Source: Tsukamurella pulmonis (lineage in GTDB: Bacteria; Actinomycetota; Actinomycetes; Mycobacteriales; Mycobacteriaceae). From it: DNA of 64,000 bases. The notes under the pieces were generated by a model. The model made no database searches and was not told the origin of the DNA. It was given only the letters and a program-made list of their open reading frames with translations. A program made the translations under genes and the position numbers. The DNA is taken from assembly GCF_900103175.1 (NCBI RefSeq), contig NZ_FNLF01000002.1, positions 434,001-498,000 of the forward strand, written 5' to 3'. This document shows positions 9,420 through 19,173 of this stretch, in pieces; within the stretch, counting starts at the first letter, position 1; every line of letters begins with the position of its first letter.

Positions 9420-9938
9420 ATGGCCGCACAGACCGCACCGGAGCGCTACGACGACGTCGACGGTTACGCCGTGGCCGTCACCCGCGAGGAGACCACCTGG
9501 ACGGTGCACCTGCTCGACCCGGGTGCACTCGGCAACATCGGCAAGGCCGAGCAGGAGCTCAAGGGGCTGCGCGCCACCGGCGCGGTGTTCGGCCTGCTCA
9601 ACGTGGACGACGAGTACTTCGTCATCGTGCGGCCCGGGCCCTCGGGCACGCGGCTGCTGCTCTCGGACGCCACGGCCGCCGTCTTCGACGAGCTCGCGGT
9701 GCAGGCGCTCGAGCGGCTCAACGTCGACGTGCCGGACATCGATCCCGAGGAGATCGAGGACACCGATCCCTGGCCCGAGGGCGATCTCGGCATCCTCGGC
9801 GACCTCGGCCTCGGCGAGCAGGAGCTCAGTGTGCTGCTGGCCGACCCGGACCTCTACCCGGACGAGCAGCTGCAGGTCATCGCCGAGCGGCTCCGGTTCG
9901 ACACCGAGCTCGGCGCGATCCTCGATTCCCTGGGCTAG
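9420..9938 (+). CDS. tRNA adenosine deaminase-associated protein
   Basis: A 172-residue acidic protein of the actinobacterial family found immediately upstream of tadA (Rv3753c type). It has no known catalytic motif. It is beta-rich at the N-terminus, then very acidic around DIDPEEIEDTDPWPEG (about 115-130), with a helical C-terminus. Its TAG stop overlaps the GTG start of tadA (TAGTG), implying translational coupling. A supporting role for TadA is inferred from constant gene order only. Confidence 0.8.
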   Translation: MAAQTAPERYDDVDGYAVAVTREETTWTVHLLDPGALGNIGKAEQELKGLRATGAVFGLLNVDDEYFVIVRPGPSGTRLLLSDATAAVFDELAVQALERLNVDVPDIDPEEIEDTDPWPEGDLGILGDLGLGEQELSVLLADPDLYPDEQLQVIAERLRFDTELGAILDSLG

Positions 9939-10402
9939 TGGCACTGCTCGACGCCGAGCGCGCGGCGGTGGGCCTCGCCCTGGAGGCCGCGGGCCTGTCC
10001 GGCCCGGACGACGTGCCCGTCGGCGCCGCGGTGATCGCCCCCGACGGTGCCGTGCTCGCGATGGCGGGCAACCGGCGGGAGGCCTCCGGGGATCCGACCG
10101 CCCACGCCGAGGTGCTCGCGATCCGCGAGGCGACGGCGGCGTTCGGCGACGGCTGGCGGCTCGAGGGCTGCACCCTGGCCGTCACGCTGGAGCCGTGCGC
10201 GATGTGCGCGGGAGCGCTGGTCTCGGCCCGCATCGGCCACCTCGTCTTCGGCGCCTTCGAACCGAAGACCGGCGCCGTCGGGTCGGTGTGGGACGTGGTG
10301 CGCGATCCGCGCGTCACGCACCGCGTGACGGTGCGCGGCGGCGTCCGCGAGGCCGAGTGCGCCGCCCTCCTCACGGACTTCTTCGCCCCGCACCGGTCGT
10401 GA
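9938..10402 (+). CDS. tadA: tRNA-specific adenosine deaminase
   Basis: A 154-residue cytidine/deoxycytidylate-deaminase-fold enzyme that converts A34 to inosine in tRNA-Arg(ACG). Zinc-site motifs are complete: HAE with the catalytic Glu (about residue 49-51) and PCAMCAGA (about 81-88). The length is normal. The GTG start overlaps the upstream stop by one base. A tRNA-Ser gene follows 46 bp downstream. The call is firm. Confidence 0.93.
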   Translation: MALLDAERAAVGLALEAAGLSGPDDVPVGAAVIAPDGAVLAMAGNRREASGDPTAHAEVLAIREATAAFGDGWRLEGCTLAVTLEPCAMCAGALVSARIGHLVFGAFEPKTGAVGSVWDVVRDPRVTHRVTVRGGVREAECAALLTDFFAPHRS

Positions 10403-12612: not shown

Positions 12613-12754
12613 ACCCTGCACGCTACCTGCCGACCGGTGATGAGCCTCACAAAACTGCCGGTCAGCGACATTATTGCGGGCGGCAACGATCGGTACACTC
12701 GAACTCGACCCGTACAGCGCGCCCGACGCGCATCGACGACTCGGAGTGACTCGC

Positions 12755-15700
12755 ATGGCACTGTTCCTGTACCGGCTGGGGAGGTTCGCCTACCTCAACC
12801 GATTCAAAGTCATCGCGGTATGGCTGTTGATCTTCGTCGGAGTGCTCGGTGCCGGTGTCGCGCTGAGCAAGCCCACCGTCGACAACTTCTCGCTGCCCGG
12901 CCTGCCGTCGGAGAAGGCGACGAACATCGTCTCCGAGAACTTCGGCGACAGCGGCGGCGATCCCTTCACCACCGCCTCGGCGACCATCGTCTTCCACGCC
13001 AAGGACGGCAAGCTCACCGATCCGGCCGCCGCGGCCGGCATCGATCGCACGATCGCCGACATCAAGAACCTGACCAAGAAGGTCACGGAGAACGGCGTCG
13101 AGCGCGACGAGCCGCTGGTCAAGGACCGCGAGCTGCTGCACAACCCGACGGGCAAGCTGGATCCGAACGCGCTCACCCCGGACCAGCGCGCCCAGCTCGA
13201 GGCGATCACGGCCCAGGGCAAGGACATCGCGTCGACCAAGTCGCCGCAGCAGAAGGACGCCGACGCCGCCGCGACCTCGTCGGTCAGCCCGGACGGCAAG
13301 ACCGCCAAGATCACGGTGAACTTCGTCGACAAGGTCACCGACCTGCCCAAGTCGCTCTCCGAGGACATCACCAAGGCGCGCGAGGCCGGCGAGTCCGCCT
13401 CCAACGGCACCCTGCAGATCGAGGCCGACGGTTCCGCCGCCCGCGGCGAGCCCGACCTGGGCGCGACGAGCGAGATCATCGGCATGATCGTGGCCGCGAT
13501 CGTCCTCATCATCACCTTCGCCTCGCTGGTCGCCTGGGGCCTGCCGCTGATCAACGCGATCATCGCCGTGCCCGTCGCCATCGGCGGCGTCATGCTCGCC
13601 ACGCATTTCATCGAGCTCGGCACCTTCCCCACGGTCCTGACCTCGATGATCGGCCTGGCCGTCACCATCGACTACGCCCTGTTCATCGTGTCCCGATATC
13701 GGCACGAACTCCGGCGACTGGGCGCCACGACCAAGGAGCAACGCGCGGAGGCCGCCGGCATCGCCGTGGGCACCGCCGGCACCGCGGTGATCTTCGCCGG
13801 CCTGACGGTGATCATCGCGCTCGCCGCGCTGGCCTTCATCGGCATGGACTTCCTCGGCCAGATGGGCGTCGCCGCCGCGTGGGGTGTGTTCATCGCCGTG
13901 ATCGTGGCCCTGACCCTGCTCCCGGCGCTGCTCGGCCTGTTCGGCTCGAAGGTCTTCGCCGGCCGCGTCAAGGGCCTGCACCCGCCGGACACCGACGAGG
14001 GCGAGGGCCGGGTCGCCAACGGCCTGCGCTGGGCGCACCTGATCAAGAAGGTCCCCGTCGTCACGCTGATCGCGGGCGTCGCGGTGCTCGGCATCCTCGC
14101 CATCCCGATCAAGGACATGAAGACCGCGCTGCCCGGCTCGGGCATGAGCGAGAAGAGCACGTCGGAGCGGCAGGCCTACGACCTCATCGCCGACGCCTGG
14201 GGCAAGGGCGCCAACGGCACCCTGCTCGTCGCCCTCGACGGTGCCGACGCCCAGCCGAACCAGCGCCTGGCCGCTTACGCGCAGATCGTGGACAAGCTCA
14301 ACACGAGCCCCGAGCTGTCGCCGCTGGTCGCGAACGCGCAGATCGCGCAGCTCGCGCCCGACAACAAGGCGGCGACGGTCATCGTCACGCCCAAGTCGGG
14401 CCCGAACGACGACGACACCCAGTCGCTGGTGACCAAGATCCGCAACATGGCCAACGGCGACGCCGGCACCGAGAGCCGCCTCGGCGTGGACCTCGGCGTC
14501 GCGGGCAGCACGGCCATCGAGATGGACGTCTCCGAGAAGCTCGGCTTCAAGATCAGCGCGGGCGGTGTCCTGCCGCTCTACCTCGCCATCGTGGTGGGCC
14601 TGGCGTTCGTGCTGCTGCTCGTCGCCTTCCGCTCGATCATGGTGCCGATCACGGCCGCCCTGGGTTTCCTGCTCTCGGTGCTCGCCACCTTCGGCGTCAC
14701 CTCGGCGATCTTCACCGACGGTGCGCTCGGCCTGATCGACAACACGCAGCCGCTGGTGGCGTTCCTGCCGATCTTCATGATCGGCATCGTCTTCGGCCTC
14801 GCGATGGACTACCAGGTCTTCCTGGTCTCCCGGATGCGCGAGGAGTTCGTGCACACCGGCGATGCCACGCAGTCCGTGGTGACGGGCGTGCAGTACGGCG
14901 CCCGCGTGGTGACCGCCGCGGCGATCATCATGATCTCGGTCTTCGCCTCGTTCATCCTCAACGAGCAGGTGTTCATCAAGGAGATCGGCTTCGGCCTGGC
15001 CGTCGCCGTCCTCTTCGACGCCTTCATCGTGCGCCTGGTGATCATCCCGTCGGTGATGACGCTGCTGGGCAAGTGGGCGTGGTGGCTGCCGAAGTGGCTG
15101 GACAAGATCCTGCCCAACGTCGACATCGAGGGCGAGGCGCTCGTCGCGCAGCTCGGCCGCGGCGCGACCGCCGACACCGCGGCGATCCCCGCGCAGACCA
15201 CGGCGGAGATCCCGGTGCCGACCGAGCAGCTGGCCCCGGTCGGCGCGACGGACGAGTACGCCCGCGGTGCCGCCCGAGTCGAGTCCGCCGGCGTCAACGG
15301 CCACAGCAACGGCGTCGCGCGGCCCAGCGTCGCACCGACGGCGCCCGTGCCGCTGGTTCCGCTCGGCAAGGACGAGCCGGCCACCGAGCCGGTGCCGGCC
15401 GCGACCACGGACGAGAACCCGGTGGTCGAGGTCAACGCCCCGGCGGCCGAGCTGCCCGAGTCGGTCGTGCAGGACACCCGGGAGTACCCGGTGGCCCGGC
15501 CCGGCGTCCCGGTGCCGGATCACACCACCACCGGCCCGATCCGCGAGCGCTCGCGCGGCGACCGCACGAGCGACGAGATCGCGCAGCTGCGCGAGCAGAA
15601 CAAGGCGATCGCCGCGGAGCTCAGCGCGCTGCGCTCGGACTACCGGTCCATGACCAGCCGGACGCGCCTGCAGAGCGAGCACATCAGCGACCCGACGCGG

Positions 15701-16951
15701 TTCGACATCGACGGTCGCCTCGAGGGCCCCGACGGTCCGCTCGGCCGCGCCGGCCGCCTGCTCACGCCGCACGGTGAGATCCTCACGCCCGCCTTCATCC
15801 CCGTCGGGACCAAGGCGACGGTGAAGACCGTCATGCCCGAGGCGGTCTCCGACCTCGGCGCACAGGCGGTGCTCGCGAACGCCTACCACCTGTACCTGCA
15901 GCCCGGTCCGGAGATCGTGGAGCAGGCCGGCGGCCTGGGCGCGTTCATGAACTGGGACGGCCCCACCTTCACCGATTCCGGTGGCTTCCAGGTGATGTCG
16001 CTCGGGTCGGGCTTCAAGAAGGTCATCGACATGGGCGGCGGCGAGGAGCTGCAGGGCGACGACGCCATCGCCGAGGGCAAGGACCGGCTCTCCCGCGTCG
16101 ACGACGACGGCGTGACCTTCCGCAGCCACCTCGACGGCACGGAGCACCGGTTCACGCCGGAGGTGTCGATGCAGATCCAGCACCAGCTGGGCGCCGACAT
16201 CATCTTCGCCTTCGACGAGCTGACCACCCTGCACAACACCCGCGCCTACCAGGTGGAGTCGCTGGAGCGCACGCGCCTGTGGGCCCGTCGCTGCCTCTCC
16301 GAGCACAACTGGCTCACCGCGCAGCGGCACGACGCGATCTCGCTGTGGGGCGTGGTGCAGGGTGCGCAGTACGAGGACCTGCGCCGCAAGGCGGCCAAGG
16401 ACCTGCGCGCGCTGAGCGAGGAGGACCGGCTGGCCGGCGGCCTCGGCTTCGGCGGTTACGGCATCGGCGGCGCGCTGGAGAAGGCGAACCTGGCGACGAT
16501 CGTGCGCTGGGTGAACCAGGAGCTCGAGGAGGACAAGCCCAAGCACCTCCTCGGCATCTCCGAGCCGGACGACATCTTCGCCGCGATCGAGCAGGGCATC
16601 GACACCTTCGACTGCGTCTCGCCGTCGCGGGTGGCGCGCAACGGTGCGATCTACTCGCTCGACGGTCGCTACAACGTGACCAACTCGCGGTTCAAGACGG
16701 ACTTCCGCCCGCTCGATCCCGAGACGGAGAACTTCACCTCGCAGTACACCCGCGCGTACATCCATCACCTGTTCAAGGCGAAGGAGAGCCTCGCGGCCAC
16801 GCTCGCGACGATCCACAACGAGCAGTTCATCGTCTCCCTGGTCGCGAAGATCCGGGCGTCGATGCTCGACGGCACGTACTGGGACTTCAAGGAGGAGTTC
16901 CTGGGCCGCTACTACAAGGGAACCCAGCAGCACCTCGCCAAGTCGGACTAG
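12755..16951 (+). CDS. MMPL-family transporter fused to a tRNA-guanine transglycosylase domain
   Basis: A single uninterrupted frame of 1398 residues. Residues 1 to about 780 form a complete MMPL/RND transporter: TM1 (about 12-36), a large extracytoplasmic loop (40-240), five helices, a second loop and five more helices. The Asp-Tyr proton-relay pairs are present in both halves (D306-Y307 and D685-Y686). Residues about 780-965 are a Pro/Ala/Glu-rich tail ending in a coiled coil (REQNKAIAAELSALRSDYRS). Residues about 983-1398 are a TGT domain with TDSGGFQ (Asp1074), FDELT (Asp1154) and the nucleophile region FDCVSPSR (Asp1286). The three zinc Cys positions are Thr1324, Asn1326 and Ser1329. The ATG at 12755 has a GGAG site. 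An internal ATG (15650) has no ribosome-binding site. Either this is a true fusion or a stop was lost between two genes. Confidence 0.85.
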   Translation: MALFLYRLGRFAYLNRFKVIAVWLLIFVGVLGAGVALSKPTVDNFSLPGLPSEKATNIVSENFGDSGGDPFTTASATIVFHAKDGKLTDPAAAAGIDRTIADIKNLTKKVTENGVERDEPLVKDRELLHNPTGKLDPNALTPDQRAQLEAITAQGKDIASTKSPQQKDADAAATSSVSPDGKTAKITVNFVDKVTDLPKSLSEDITKAREAGESASNGTLQIEADGSAARGEPDLGATSEIIGMIVAAIVLIITFASLVAWGLPLINAIIAVPVAIGGVMLATHFIELGTFPTVLTSMIGLAVTIDYALFIVSRYRHELRRLGATTKEQRAEAAGIAVGTAGTAVIFAGLTVIIALAALAFIGMDFLGQMGVAAAWGVFIAVIVALTLLPALLGLFGSKVFAGRVKGLHPPDTDEGEGRVANGLRWAHLIKKVPVVTLIAGVAVLGILAIPIKDMKTALPGSGMSEKSTSERQAYDLIADAWGKGANGTLLVALDGADAQPNQRLAAYAQIVDKLNTSPELSPLVANAQIAQLAPDNKAATVIVTPKSGPNDDDTQSLVTKIRNMANGDAGTESRLGVDLGVAGSTAIEMDVSEKLGFKISAGGVLPLYLAIVVGLAFVLLLVAFRSIMVPITAALGFLLSVLATFGVTSAIFTDGALGLIDNTQPLVAFLPIFMIGIVFGLAMDYQVFLVSRMREEFVHTGDATQSVVTGVQYGARVVTAAAIIMISVFASFILNEQVFIKEIGFGLAVAVLFDAFIVRLVIIPSVMTLLGKWAWWLPKWLDKILPNVDIEGEALVAQLGRGATADTAAIPAQTTAEIPVPTEQLAPVGATDEYARGAARVESAGVNGHSNGVARPSVAPTAPVPLVPLGKDEPATEPVPAATTDENPVVEVNAPAAELPESVVQDTREYPVARPGVPVPDHTTTGPIRERSRGDRTSDEIAQLREQNKAIAAELSALRSDYRSMTSRTRLQSEHISDPTRFDIDGRLEGPDGPLGRAGRLLTPHGEILTPAFIPVGTKATVKTVMPEAVSDLGAQAVLANAYHLYLQPGPEIVEQAGGLGAFMNWDGPTFTDSGGFQVMSLGSGFKKVIDMGGGEELQGDDAIAEGKDRLSRVDDDGVTFRSHLDGTEHRFTPEVSMQIQHQLGADIIFAFDELTTLHNTRAYQVESLERTRLWARRCLSEHNWLTAQRHDAISLWGVVQGAQYEDLRRKAAKDLRALSEEDRLAGGLGFGGYGIGGALEKANLATIVRWVNQELEEDKPKHLLGISEPDDIFAAIEQGIDTFDCVSPSRVARNGAIYSLDGRYNVTNSRFKTDFRPLDPETENFTSQYTRAYIHHLFKAKESLAATLATIHNEQFIVSLVAKIRASMLDGTYWDFKEEFLGRYYKGTQQHLAKSD

Positions 16952-18321: not shown

Positions 18322-19173
18322 TCAGAGCGGCAACGTCCACGGCTCGCGCGGAAGCCGTGCCGGATCGAAGTCGTCGAGCATCTCGCGCGGGGTGCGCCCG
18401 CGCAGCCCGAGGCTCGCGGCGATCTCCGGCAGCACGACCCCCGGCCCCCCGCGGTCGGCGAGGGTGACGGCACCGTCGCGCTTGGCGAGCCGGACGCCGT
18501 TGGGGCCCAGCACCATCGGTACGTGGGCGTAGGTCGGCGGCGGATCGCCGAGCAGCGTCCCGAGGTAGGCCTGCCGCGGCGCGGAGGAGAGCAGATCGTC
18601 GCCGCGCACCACCTGGTCGACGCCCTGCGCGGCGTCGTCGACCACCACGGCGAGGTTGTAGGCGTACGTCCCGTCGCCGCGCCGGAGCACGAAATCATCG
18701 ACCGCGCCGGTGTATTCGCCGTGCAGCACGTCGGTGACCGTGAACTCGTCGACGGTCGCGCGCAGCCGCAGGGCGGCCGGGCGCTCGCGCCGCCGTTCCA
18801 CCCGTTGCGCCTCGGTGAGGTCGCGACAGGTCCCCGGGTACGCGCCCTCCGGCGCGTGCGGCGCCGACGGGGCCGCGAGGATCTCCCGCCGGGTGCAGTA
18901 GCACTCGTACACGTCGAGCCGTGTCAGCGCCGCCGCGTACACGTCGGTGCGGGCGGACTGCCGCACGGGCGCTCCGTCCCAGTCCAGGCCGATCGCGGCG
19001 AGGTCGGCGAGTTGCCGGGCCTCGGCACCGCCGGCCACCCGGTCCAGATCCTCGACGCGCAGGAGGAACTCCCGGCCCGTCGAGCGGGCGAACAGCCAGG
19101 CCAGGAGCGCGGTGCGCAGATTGCCCACGTGCAGATCGCCCGAGGGGCTCGGCGCGTACCGTCCAGCAGTCAC
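18322..19173 (-). CDS. gluQ: Glutamyl-Q tRNA(Asp) synthetase
   Basis: A 283-residue truncated glutamyl-tRNA-synthetase paralogue that attaches glutamate to queuosine at position 34 of tRNA-Asp. It has the class I HIGH-type motif in [12 protein letters not shown] (about 7-18), a Cys-containing zinc insertion ([10 protein letters not shown] and later YPGTCRDL), and the KMSKS equivalent VRLAKRDG. It lacks the anticodon-binding domain, as expected for this family. The GTG start overlaps the upstream WYL regulator stop (GTGA), so the two are translationally coupled. Its presence near a TGT-containing gene supports queuosine-modified tRNA in this organism. Confidence 0.92.

What the first reader, a model, noticed from the sequence alone, without database searches (positions are those of the whole stretch)
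12755..16951. Transporter-enzyme fusion: MMPL permease joined to a tRNA-guanine transglycosylase
One frame with no stop contains a complete MMPL transporter (both D-Y proton-relay pairs kept) and, after a coiled-coil tail, a TGT domain with its catalytic aspartates. No ribosome-binding site precedes the internal ATG (15650). The MMPL C-terminus is cytoplasmic, so the enzyme would sit at the membrane, possibly close to a transported base or its precursor. I know of no described MMPL-TGT fusion. A lost stop codon or assembly artefact is the main alternative.
Basis: partly seen in the sequence, partly recalled or inferred. Interest (0 to 1): 0.85.

Follow-up and report, generated by a model that had tools for sequence, protein, structure and literature searches.

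The report
Lipid-type transporter fused to tRNA-modifying enzyme
One protein joins a membrane transporter, probably of the kind that exports cell-envelope lipids, to the enzyme that puts queuine into tRNA; the fusion is shared across this bacterial genus and already in print, but the same enzyme module, with a decayed active site, also sits on other transporters of the same cell, which looks new.

Summary
Window 12755-16951 is one 1398-aa frame: MMPL transporter, Pro/Ala linker, short coiled coil, full TGT domain. It is not an artefact: 14 of 16 genomes of the genus (Tsukamurella, by named loci) carry it in one open frame; the other two are a contig end and a broken frame. Sister genera have stand-alone tgt, often with a separate MMPL gene upstream, so a neighbouring pair probably fused. 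The fusion is in print (Quaiyum 2024, Tpau_4044). Not seen in print here: all four TGT-domain proteins found in this genome are transporter fusions (2 MMPL, 2 MFS) sharing a coil-TGT module seen only in this genus, and only the window copy keeps the full active site. The MMPL half is probably a CmpL4-type envelope-lipid transporter, not a queuine importer: in C. glutamicum tgt lies downstream of cmpL4, and a known importer family (QPTR) occurs in exactly the 27 TGT-bearing genomes of 29 tested. QueA is absent and GluQRS is a close neighbour, so the enzyme most likely inserts salvaged queuine at the membrane. The decayed modules may bind, dimerise or regulate. Structure prediction never ran.

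The parts
12743..12748 (+). ribosome-binding-like GGAGTG before ATG 12755
   Evidence: GGAG in 13 of 13 congeners printed
12755..15124 (+). MMPL transporter part (about residues 1-790), D306-Y307 and D685-Y686 pairs; CmpL4-type by context
15125..15559 (+). Pro/Ala-rich linker of variable length, open in frame in the 14 intact genomes of the genus
15560..15727 (+). genus-specific conserved block: coiled coil with regular a/d heptads (residues 942-963, nt 15578-15643) plus the TRLQ..DPTRF segment
15743..16915 (+). TGT domain (residues 997-1387), full active site, three Zn cysteines lost, H349 equivalent kept
18322..19173 (-). GluQRS, glutamyl-Q tRNA(Asp) synthetase, acts on the product of the TGT (role recalled)
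9420..10402 (+). tRNA-adenosine-deaminase-associated protein (over its cut-off) and a TadA-like deaminase (131 bits, cut-off 150), neighbours also found near tgt in other genera

Best explanation
Shown by sequence: in this genus an MMPL transporter and a TGT, which are neighbouring separate genes in several sister genera, are one polypeptide, and the TGT half is the only one of the genome's four TGT-domain proteins with a complete active site. Inferred: the MMPL half is a CmpL4-type, proton-driven envelope-lipid (mycolate) transporter and not the importer of the base; queuine enters through the separate QPTR carrier; the cytoplasmic C-terminal TGT, held as a dimer by itself and by the coiled coil, swaps G34 of GUN tRNAs for queuine at the membrane; GluQRS then glutamylates Q in tRNA-Asp. 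Also inferred: the coil-TGT module was copied after the fusion onto a second MMPL and onto MFS export pumps, where it lost base-recognition residues and now serves as a binding, dimerisation or regulatory domain.
For: One frame in 14 of 16 genus genomes. TIGR00430 above its cut-off; median dN/dS 0.06 in the TGT part and 0.17 in the transporter part (7 of 14 intact sequences used). Stand-alone tgt with a separate MMPL upstream on the same strand in 7 of 19 loci outside the genus and in 36 of 70 named non-Tsukamurella loci; in L068 and L070 the two stop-to-stop frames are separated by a single stop codon. C. glutamicum: tgt lies downstream of cmpL4, a mycolate-lipid gene. QPTR in 27 of 29 genomes, exactly those with TGT; QueA in 0 of 9 genus genomes tested; GluQRS equivalog about 1.4 kb downstream. 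Other modules.
Against: No transport, tRNA or localisation assay was found or could be made. CmpL4 orthology rests on context and best score; the tree joins the fused MMPL to tgt-linked ones only weakly (86/61), and neither NCgl0228 hexapeptide tested occurs in the fused MMPL. The repeated mmpL-tgt pairing could mean a real Q link for the MMPL. The OtrB-type decayed copies keep the D102 and D280 equivalents (13 of 13), so some chemistry cannot be excluded. By region, the supposed dimer part of the decayed copies is no more like the active TGT than other parts are (0.46 identity for the OtrB type, 0.32 for the second-MMPL type). The decayed clade is not clearly rooted inside the genus TGTs. G014 has the two halves in different frames. 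Pfam QueC is just over its cut-off in the own genome (22.4 against 22 bits), read here as a chance or PP-loop match.
Confidence: 0.6

Rival explanations
1. The MMPL half is itself an importer (or exporter) of queuine or a related 7-deazapurine and hands it to the fused TGT.
For: Gene fusion and repeated gene pairing; MMPL was a high-scoring Q-transporter candidate in PMC11130926.
Against: QPTR is present in each TGT-bearing genome of the 29 tested; only weak MMPL matches in TGT-bearing G019 and G022 (best 139 and 149 bits) but strong ones (566 and 548 bits) in TGT-less G032; a C. propinquum MmpL did not complement in E. coli, expression failure not ruled out; the tgt-linked cmpL4 of C. glutamicum works in mycolate metabolism.
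Confidence: 0.2
2. The fusion is neutral: a stop codon was lost, the linker is cleaved or simply tolerated, and each half does its former job. This overlaps with the best explanation for the jobs of the halves, and differs in giving the joining no use.
For: Single-stop separation in L068 and L070; long linker of variable length.
Against: Residues 957-985 (end of the coil and the segment after it) are 0.88 identical among catalytic copies and 0.82-0.88 within the two decayed groups, where they are the best-kept region (in the catalytic copies the TGT body is better kept, 0.91-0.98); the block precedes every module whose start is present.
Confidence: 0.25
3. Frame or assembly artefact.
For: G014 carries the halves in different frames.
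Against: 14 of 16 species assemblies agree, with dN/dS well under 1 in both halves.
Confidence: 0.01

Closest known systems
Tpau_4044 (MMPL-TGT) and Tpau_0550 (MFS-TGT) of Tsukamurella, Quaiyum et al. 2024, PMC11130926
   Same: Same architecture and genus; the window gene is very likely the Tpau_4044 ortholog (inferred; that accession was not fetched).
   Different: The passages and sections read do not mention a decayed active site in the MFS copy, a second MMPL-TGT, an LfrA-like MFS-TGT, the shared coil, the Zn loss or CmpL4; supplements were not read.
cmpL4 (NCgl0228) and downstream tgt of Corynebacterium glutamicum, PMC4287177 and PMC3370651
   Same: MMPL gene followed by tgt.
   Different: Two separate proteins there, one here.
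Bacterial TGT (Z. mobilis, PDB 1enu and others)
   Same: Domain and active-site residues.
   Different: Three Zn cysteines lost; joined to a membrane protein.
Eukaryotic QTRT1/QTRT2 TGT with a non-catalytic partner subunit (roles recalled)
   Same: Idea of an active and an inactive-looking TGT-like chain in one cell.
   Different: The OtrB-type decayed domain is nearer to bacterial TGT (167 bits) and QTRT1 (133) than to QTRT2 (44), and sits on a transporter; no interaction is shown.
QPTR-TGT fusions (named in PMC11130926)
   Same: Transporter fused to TGT.
   Different: QPTR is a known Q-precursor importer; MMPL and these MFS groups are not known to be.

Membership tests
Bacterial TGT (TIGR00430) | score above the curated equivalog cut-off | tested here: met
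   381.9 against 306.75 bits
Bacterial TGT (TIGR00430) | active-site D102, D156, Q203, D280 equivalents (roles recalled) | tested here: met
   15 of 15 window-type copies aligned, window included; G007's cut copy was left out
Bacterial TGT (TIGR00430) | Zn site C318, C320, C323, H349 (recalled) | tested here: not met
   three Cys lost, His kept, 15 of 15; also lost in 10 of 23 stand-alone TGTs, so not a strict requirement in this group
Bacterial TGT (TIGR00430) | base exchange at G34 of GUN tRNAs | not testable with these tools
   needs a tRNA assay
MMPL transporter (PF03176) | Pfam score and two D-Y pairs | tested here: met
   277 bits against 20.5; D306-Y307 and D685-Y686
MmpL3 TMM exporter (NF052608) | score above the equivalog cut-off | tested here: not met
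   204 against 1400 bits; a nearer MmpL3 homologue lies at G000:C2:4442520-4445105, 807.5 bits, also under the cut-off, as in 8 of 8 genomes searched
CmpL4-type transporter | tgt-linked MMPL is the genome-wide best relative of the fused MMPL | tested here: inconclusive
   true in 7 of 18 TGT-bearing genomes outside the genus (G017, G020, G025, G031, G033, G035, and G027 when its two pieces are added); 16-20 kb from tgt in G024 and G030; a cut copy near tgt but not the best in G034; unlinked or absent in the rest; tree support weak; the C. glutamicum protein was not compared directly
Queuosine-precursor transporter | occurs wherever salvage TGT occurs | tested here: not met
   weak matches only in TGT-bearing G019 and G022; strong relatives in TGT-less G032
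Queuosine-precursor transporter | uptake of preQ0, preQ1 or queuine | not testable with these tools
   published C. propinquum MmpL test negative

The most novel reading that the evidence does not exclude
The coil-TGT module has become a membrane assembly device: decayed TGT domains on two MFS transporters and a second MMPL pair, through the shared coiled coil and kept TGT dimer residues, with the single active TGT on the lipid-type transporter, tying export and tRNA queuosine status into one complex, a bacterial counterpart of the QTRT1/QTRT2 heterodimer.
Probability: 0.15. Interest if true: 0.8.

Novelty: new variant of a known kind. Interest (0 to 1): 0.5.

Why it matters
Fusion of a transporter to TGT has been used as a sign that the transporter carries a Q precursor. 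This case is a warning: the MMPL partner is probably a lipid transporter, and the MFS partner carries a TGT domain without the base-recognition residue. It is also an unusual case of a tRNA-modifying enzyme turned into a repeated accessory module on transporters, which makes the question whether pseudo-TGTs act on transporters directly testable in one genus. The window fusion itself is already known in print; what is new is the set of decayed sister fusions and the CmpL4 reading.

Tried and rejected
Artefact or lost stop in this one assembly: rejected by 14 of 16 genus genomes. Hidden fusions in sister genera: the four longest of the stand-alone frames (569-717 aa) were scanned with Pfam and show only TGT. 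The coil as a wider domain: the profile found it in 7 of 121 family genomes, all 7 in this genus, 20 matches, each in the frame of a TGT-domain protein (for many genomes only the best 54 first-look candidates were scored). QueC: 19 of 29 genomes gave a match and 15 of these are over the Pfam cut-off of 22 bits, own genome included, but all are 20-27 bits over about 53-65 of 210 positions, most in frames of 650-730 aa; I read them as PP-loop matches of other proteins and did not count them. QueG, QueH, QueD, QueE and QueF were not searched. My note that all four catalytic positions are lost in the MFS copies was wrong: D102 and D280 align as kept; D156, Q203, G229 and the F106-Q107 loop are lost. 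Paper searches: transporter fusions with TGT, MmpL with Tsukamurella, Tsukamurella with tRNA-ribosyltransferase, MmpL with tgt and queuosine, TGT with pseudoenzyme; none showed a description of the decayed modules; papers other than PMC11130926, PMC4287177 and PMC3370651 were seen in listings only. Structure prediction of the coil-TGT module was asked for nine times and never ran because the machine was full; no fold search followed.
Full report
Observation. The frame at 12755-16951 (+) is real: 1398 aa with MMPL (277 bits) and TGT (381 bits) domains, both D-Y pairs at D306-Y307 and D685-Y686, and the equivalents of Z. mobilis D102, D156, Q203 and D280 (residue roles recalled). ATG 12755 has GGAGTG at 12743-12748; GGAG stands there in 13 of 13 congeners printed; ATG 15650 has no such site.

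Not an artefact. Of 16 genomes of the genus (own plus G001-G015), 14 carry MMPL and complete TGT in one open stop-to-stop frame of 1374-1609 codons. In G007 the TGT is cut by a contig end; in G014 (83% complete) the two halves lie in overlapping different frames. Median dN/dS is 0.17 (transporter) and 0.06 (TGT) over 21 pairs of 7 chosen sequences of 14.

Origin. In sister genera tgt stands alone. A related MMPL gene lies upstream on the same strand in 7 of 19 fetched loci outside the genus (L057, L060, L065, L066, L068, L069, L070; L071 has only a weak match on the other strand) and in 36 of 70 named non-Tsukamurella loci with up to 9 kb upstream held, 0 of 20 Gordonia among them; some loci are cut short (the best 80 of 386 relatives were kept). 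In L068 and L070 the two stop-to-stop frames touch at one stop codon. gluQRS lies in the same 20-kb stretch in 16 of 19 of those loci and tyrA in 10 of 19, so fusion of old neighbours is the simplest route. The fused MMPL's best relative is the tgt-linked one in G017, G020, G025, G031, G033 and G035, and in G027 when its two pieces are added, 7 of 18 TGT-bearing genomes outside the genus; it is 16-20 kb from tgt in G024 and G030; in G034 a cut copy lies near tgt but is not the best; in the others it is unlinked or absent. The MMPL tree agrees but with weak support (86/61).

What the MMPL half does. Yang et al. 2014 (PMC4287177, passages read) state that tgt lies downstream of cmpL4 in C. glutamicum and that co-expressing tgt with plasmid-borne cmpL4 did not improve growth; the antibiotic susceptibility of that strain was intermediate, which the authors ascribe to cmpL copy number. 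Varela et al. 2012 (PMC3370651, passages read) show that NCgl0228 (cmpL4) and NCgl2769 are redundant in corynomycolate metabolism. Two hexapeptides that I translated from the NCgl0228 primers both occur in the tgt-linked MMPL of G017 and together in no other of 48 MMPL rows, the fused ones included: a lead only, since G017 is unnamed. The MMPL half is not MmpL3 by the curated model: 204 bits against a cut-off of 1400; a nearer MmpL3 homologue, 807.5 bits, lies elsewhere in the genome.

How queuine gets in. QPTR (PF02592) is present in 27 of 29 genomes and absent from G026 and G032, the two of these 29 without TGT. QueA is found in 4 of 29 and in 0 of 9 genus genomes. QueC matches are short and near the cut-off (15 of 29 over it, own genome at 22.4 against 22 bits) and I do not count them. 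GluQRS, over two equivalog cut-offs, sits at 18322-19173; from general knowledge it needs finished queuosine, so the TGT should insert queuine itself. The MMPL relatives do not follow TGT: G019 and G022 have TGT but only weak MMPL matches, G032 lacks TGT but has strong ones.

The module. The search found four TGT-domain proteins in this genome (five matches), all fused to transporters: the window copy; L008 MMPL-TGT; L006 MFS (LfrA-like)-TGT; L007 MFS (OtrB/EmrB-like)-TGT. Across 16 genomes I count 41 TGT-domain proteins: 16 of the window type; 15 OtrB-type (one, in G014, without a transporter in its frame); 8 of the second-MMPL type (L053 cut by a contig end, L051 with only part of an MMPL in frame); and 2 other MFS, L006 and L048. 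Of these, 37 are in one frame with transporter sequence; the other four are G007, both of G014, and L053. The 39 relatives' modules whose start is present, and the window, share a block of about 50 residues whose first part has regular heptads, I7-L10-N14-I17-L21-L24-Y28 in the window, with N14 invariant in 11 of 11 aligned rows; an Asn at a core position is typical of dimeric coils (recalled). The block occurs in 7 of 121 family genomes, all in this genus, 1 of 31 genera. The two MMPL types are different branches of the MMPL tree, so the module was added to a second transporter rather than copied with the first.

Decay. Against Z. mobilis TGT, 13 of 13 OtrB-type copies (L033 and L035 apart) have Ala at 156, Thr or Ala at 203, Asp or Glu at 229 and lack F106-Q107, but keep aligned D102 and D280 and, of the residues that I recall as dimer face, Y330, H333, E339, H349 and N350; K52 is lost. 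In 8 of 8 second-MMPL copies D156 and E339 are gone and D280 is Glu in 7, while H333, H349 and N350 stay. L035 of G008 shows a different, milder decay (E102, D156 kept, G203). By region, the active-site loop of residues 1076-1105 is all but gone (0.04 identity to the catalytic copies in the MFS group), but the C-terminal region does not stand out (0.46), which does not favour a selectively kept dimer face. Median dN/dS is 0.15 for the OtrB-type module (7 of 14 used) and 0.28 for the second-MMPL module (4 of 8 used), so they are constrained, the latter weakly. The OtrB-type domain still matches solved bacterial TGTs best (167 bits), QTRT1 at 133 and QTRT2 at 44 bits. Neighbouring regulators are MarR (L007), TetR (L006) and a LuxR-type response regulator (L008). 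The TGT tree does not root the decayed copies clearly.

Zinc. The window-type TGT has lost three Zn cysteines in 15 of 15 rows, and so have 10 of 23 stand-alone TGTs; the loss probably predates the fusion.

Prior art and verdict. Quaiyum et al. 2024 (PMC11130926; passages, sections 2.1 and 2.2) report MFS-TGT Tpau_0550 and MMPL-TGT Tpau_4044 as fusions unique to Tsukamurella. So the fusion is known. Supplements of that paper were not read, so some of this may be listed there.

Noticed in passing
L006:5864-8812, L007:5466-8702, L008:6213-9812: Three further transporter-TGT fusions in the same genome (two MFS, one MMPL), each with a decayed TGT active site.
   Followed up: yes
window 15743-16915 and L057, L058, L059, L061, L062, L063, L065, L066, L068, L069: Loss of the three zinc cysteines of TGT in the fused copy and in 10 of 23 stand-alone TGTs examined.
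   Followed up: partly
G000:C2:1280036-1280518: QPTR (PF02592) carrier, unlinked to tgt here but next to tgt in several sister genera; its presence or absence matches that of TGT in 29 of 29 genomes.
   Followed up: yes
L119 / L032 (G014): MMPL and TGT halves in different overlapping frames in one congener whose assembly is 83% complete; sequencing error or true break not decided.
   Followed up: no
L007:9182-9664: Aminoacyl-tRNA editing domain protein two genes upstream of the MFS-TGT fusion, with a MarR regulator between.
   Followed up: no
L035 (G008): An OtrB-type MFS-TGT with a milder, different active-site decay (E102, D156 kept, G203), possibly an early stage.
   Followed up: partly
L014, L016, L018, L063: Some stand-alone TGTs lie in long open frames (569-717 aa) whose extra part has no Pfam match; start sites not settled.
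   Followed up: partly
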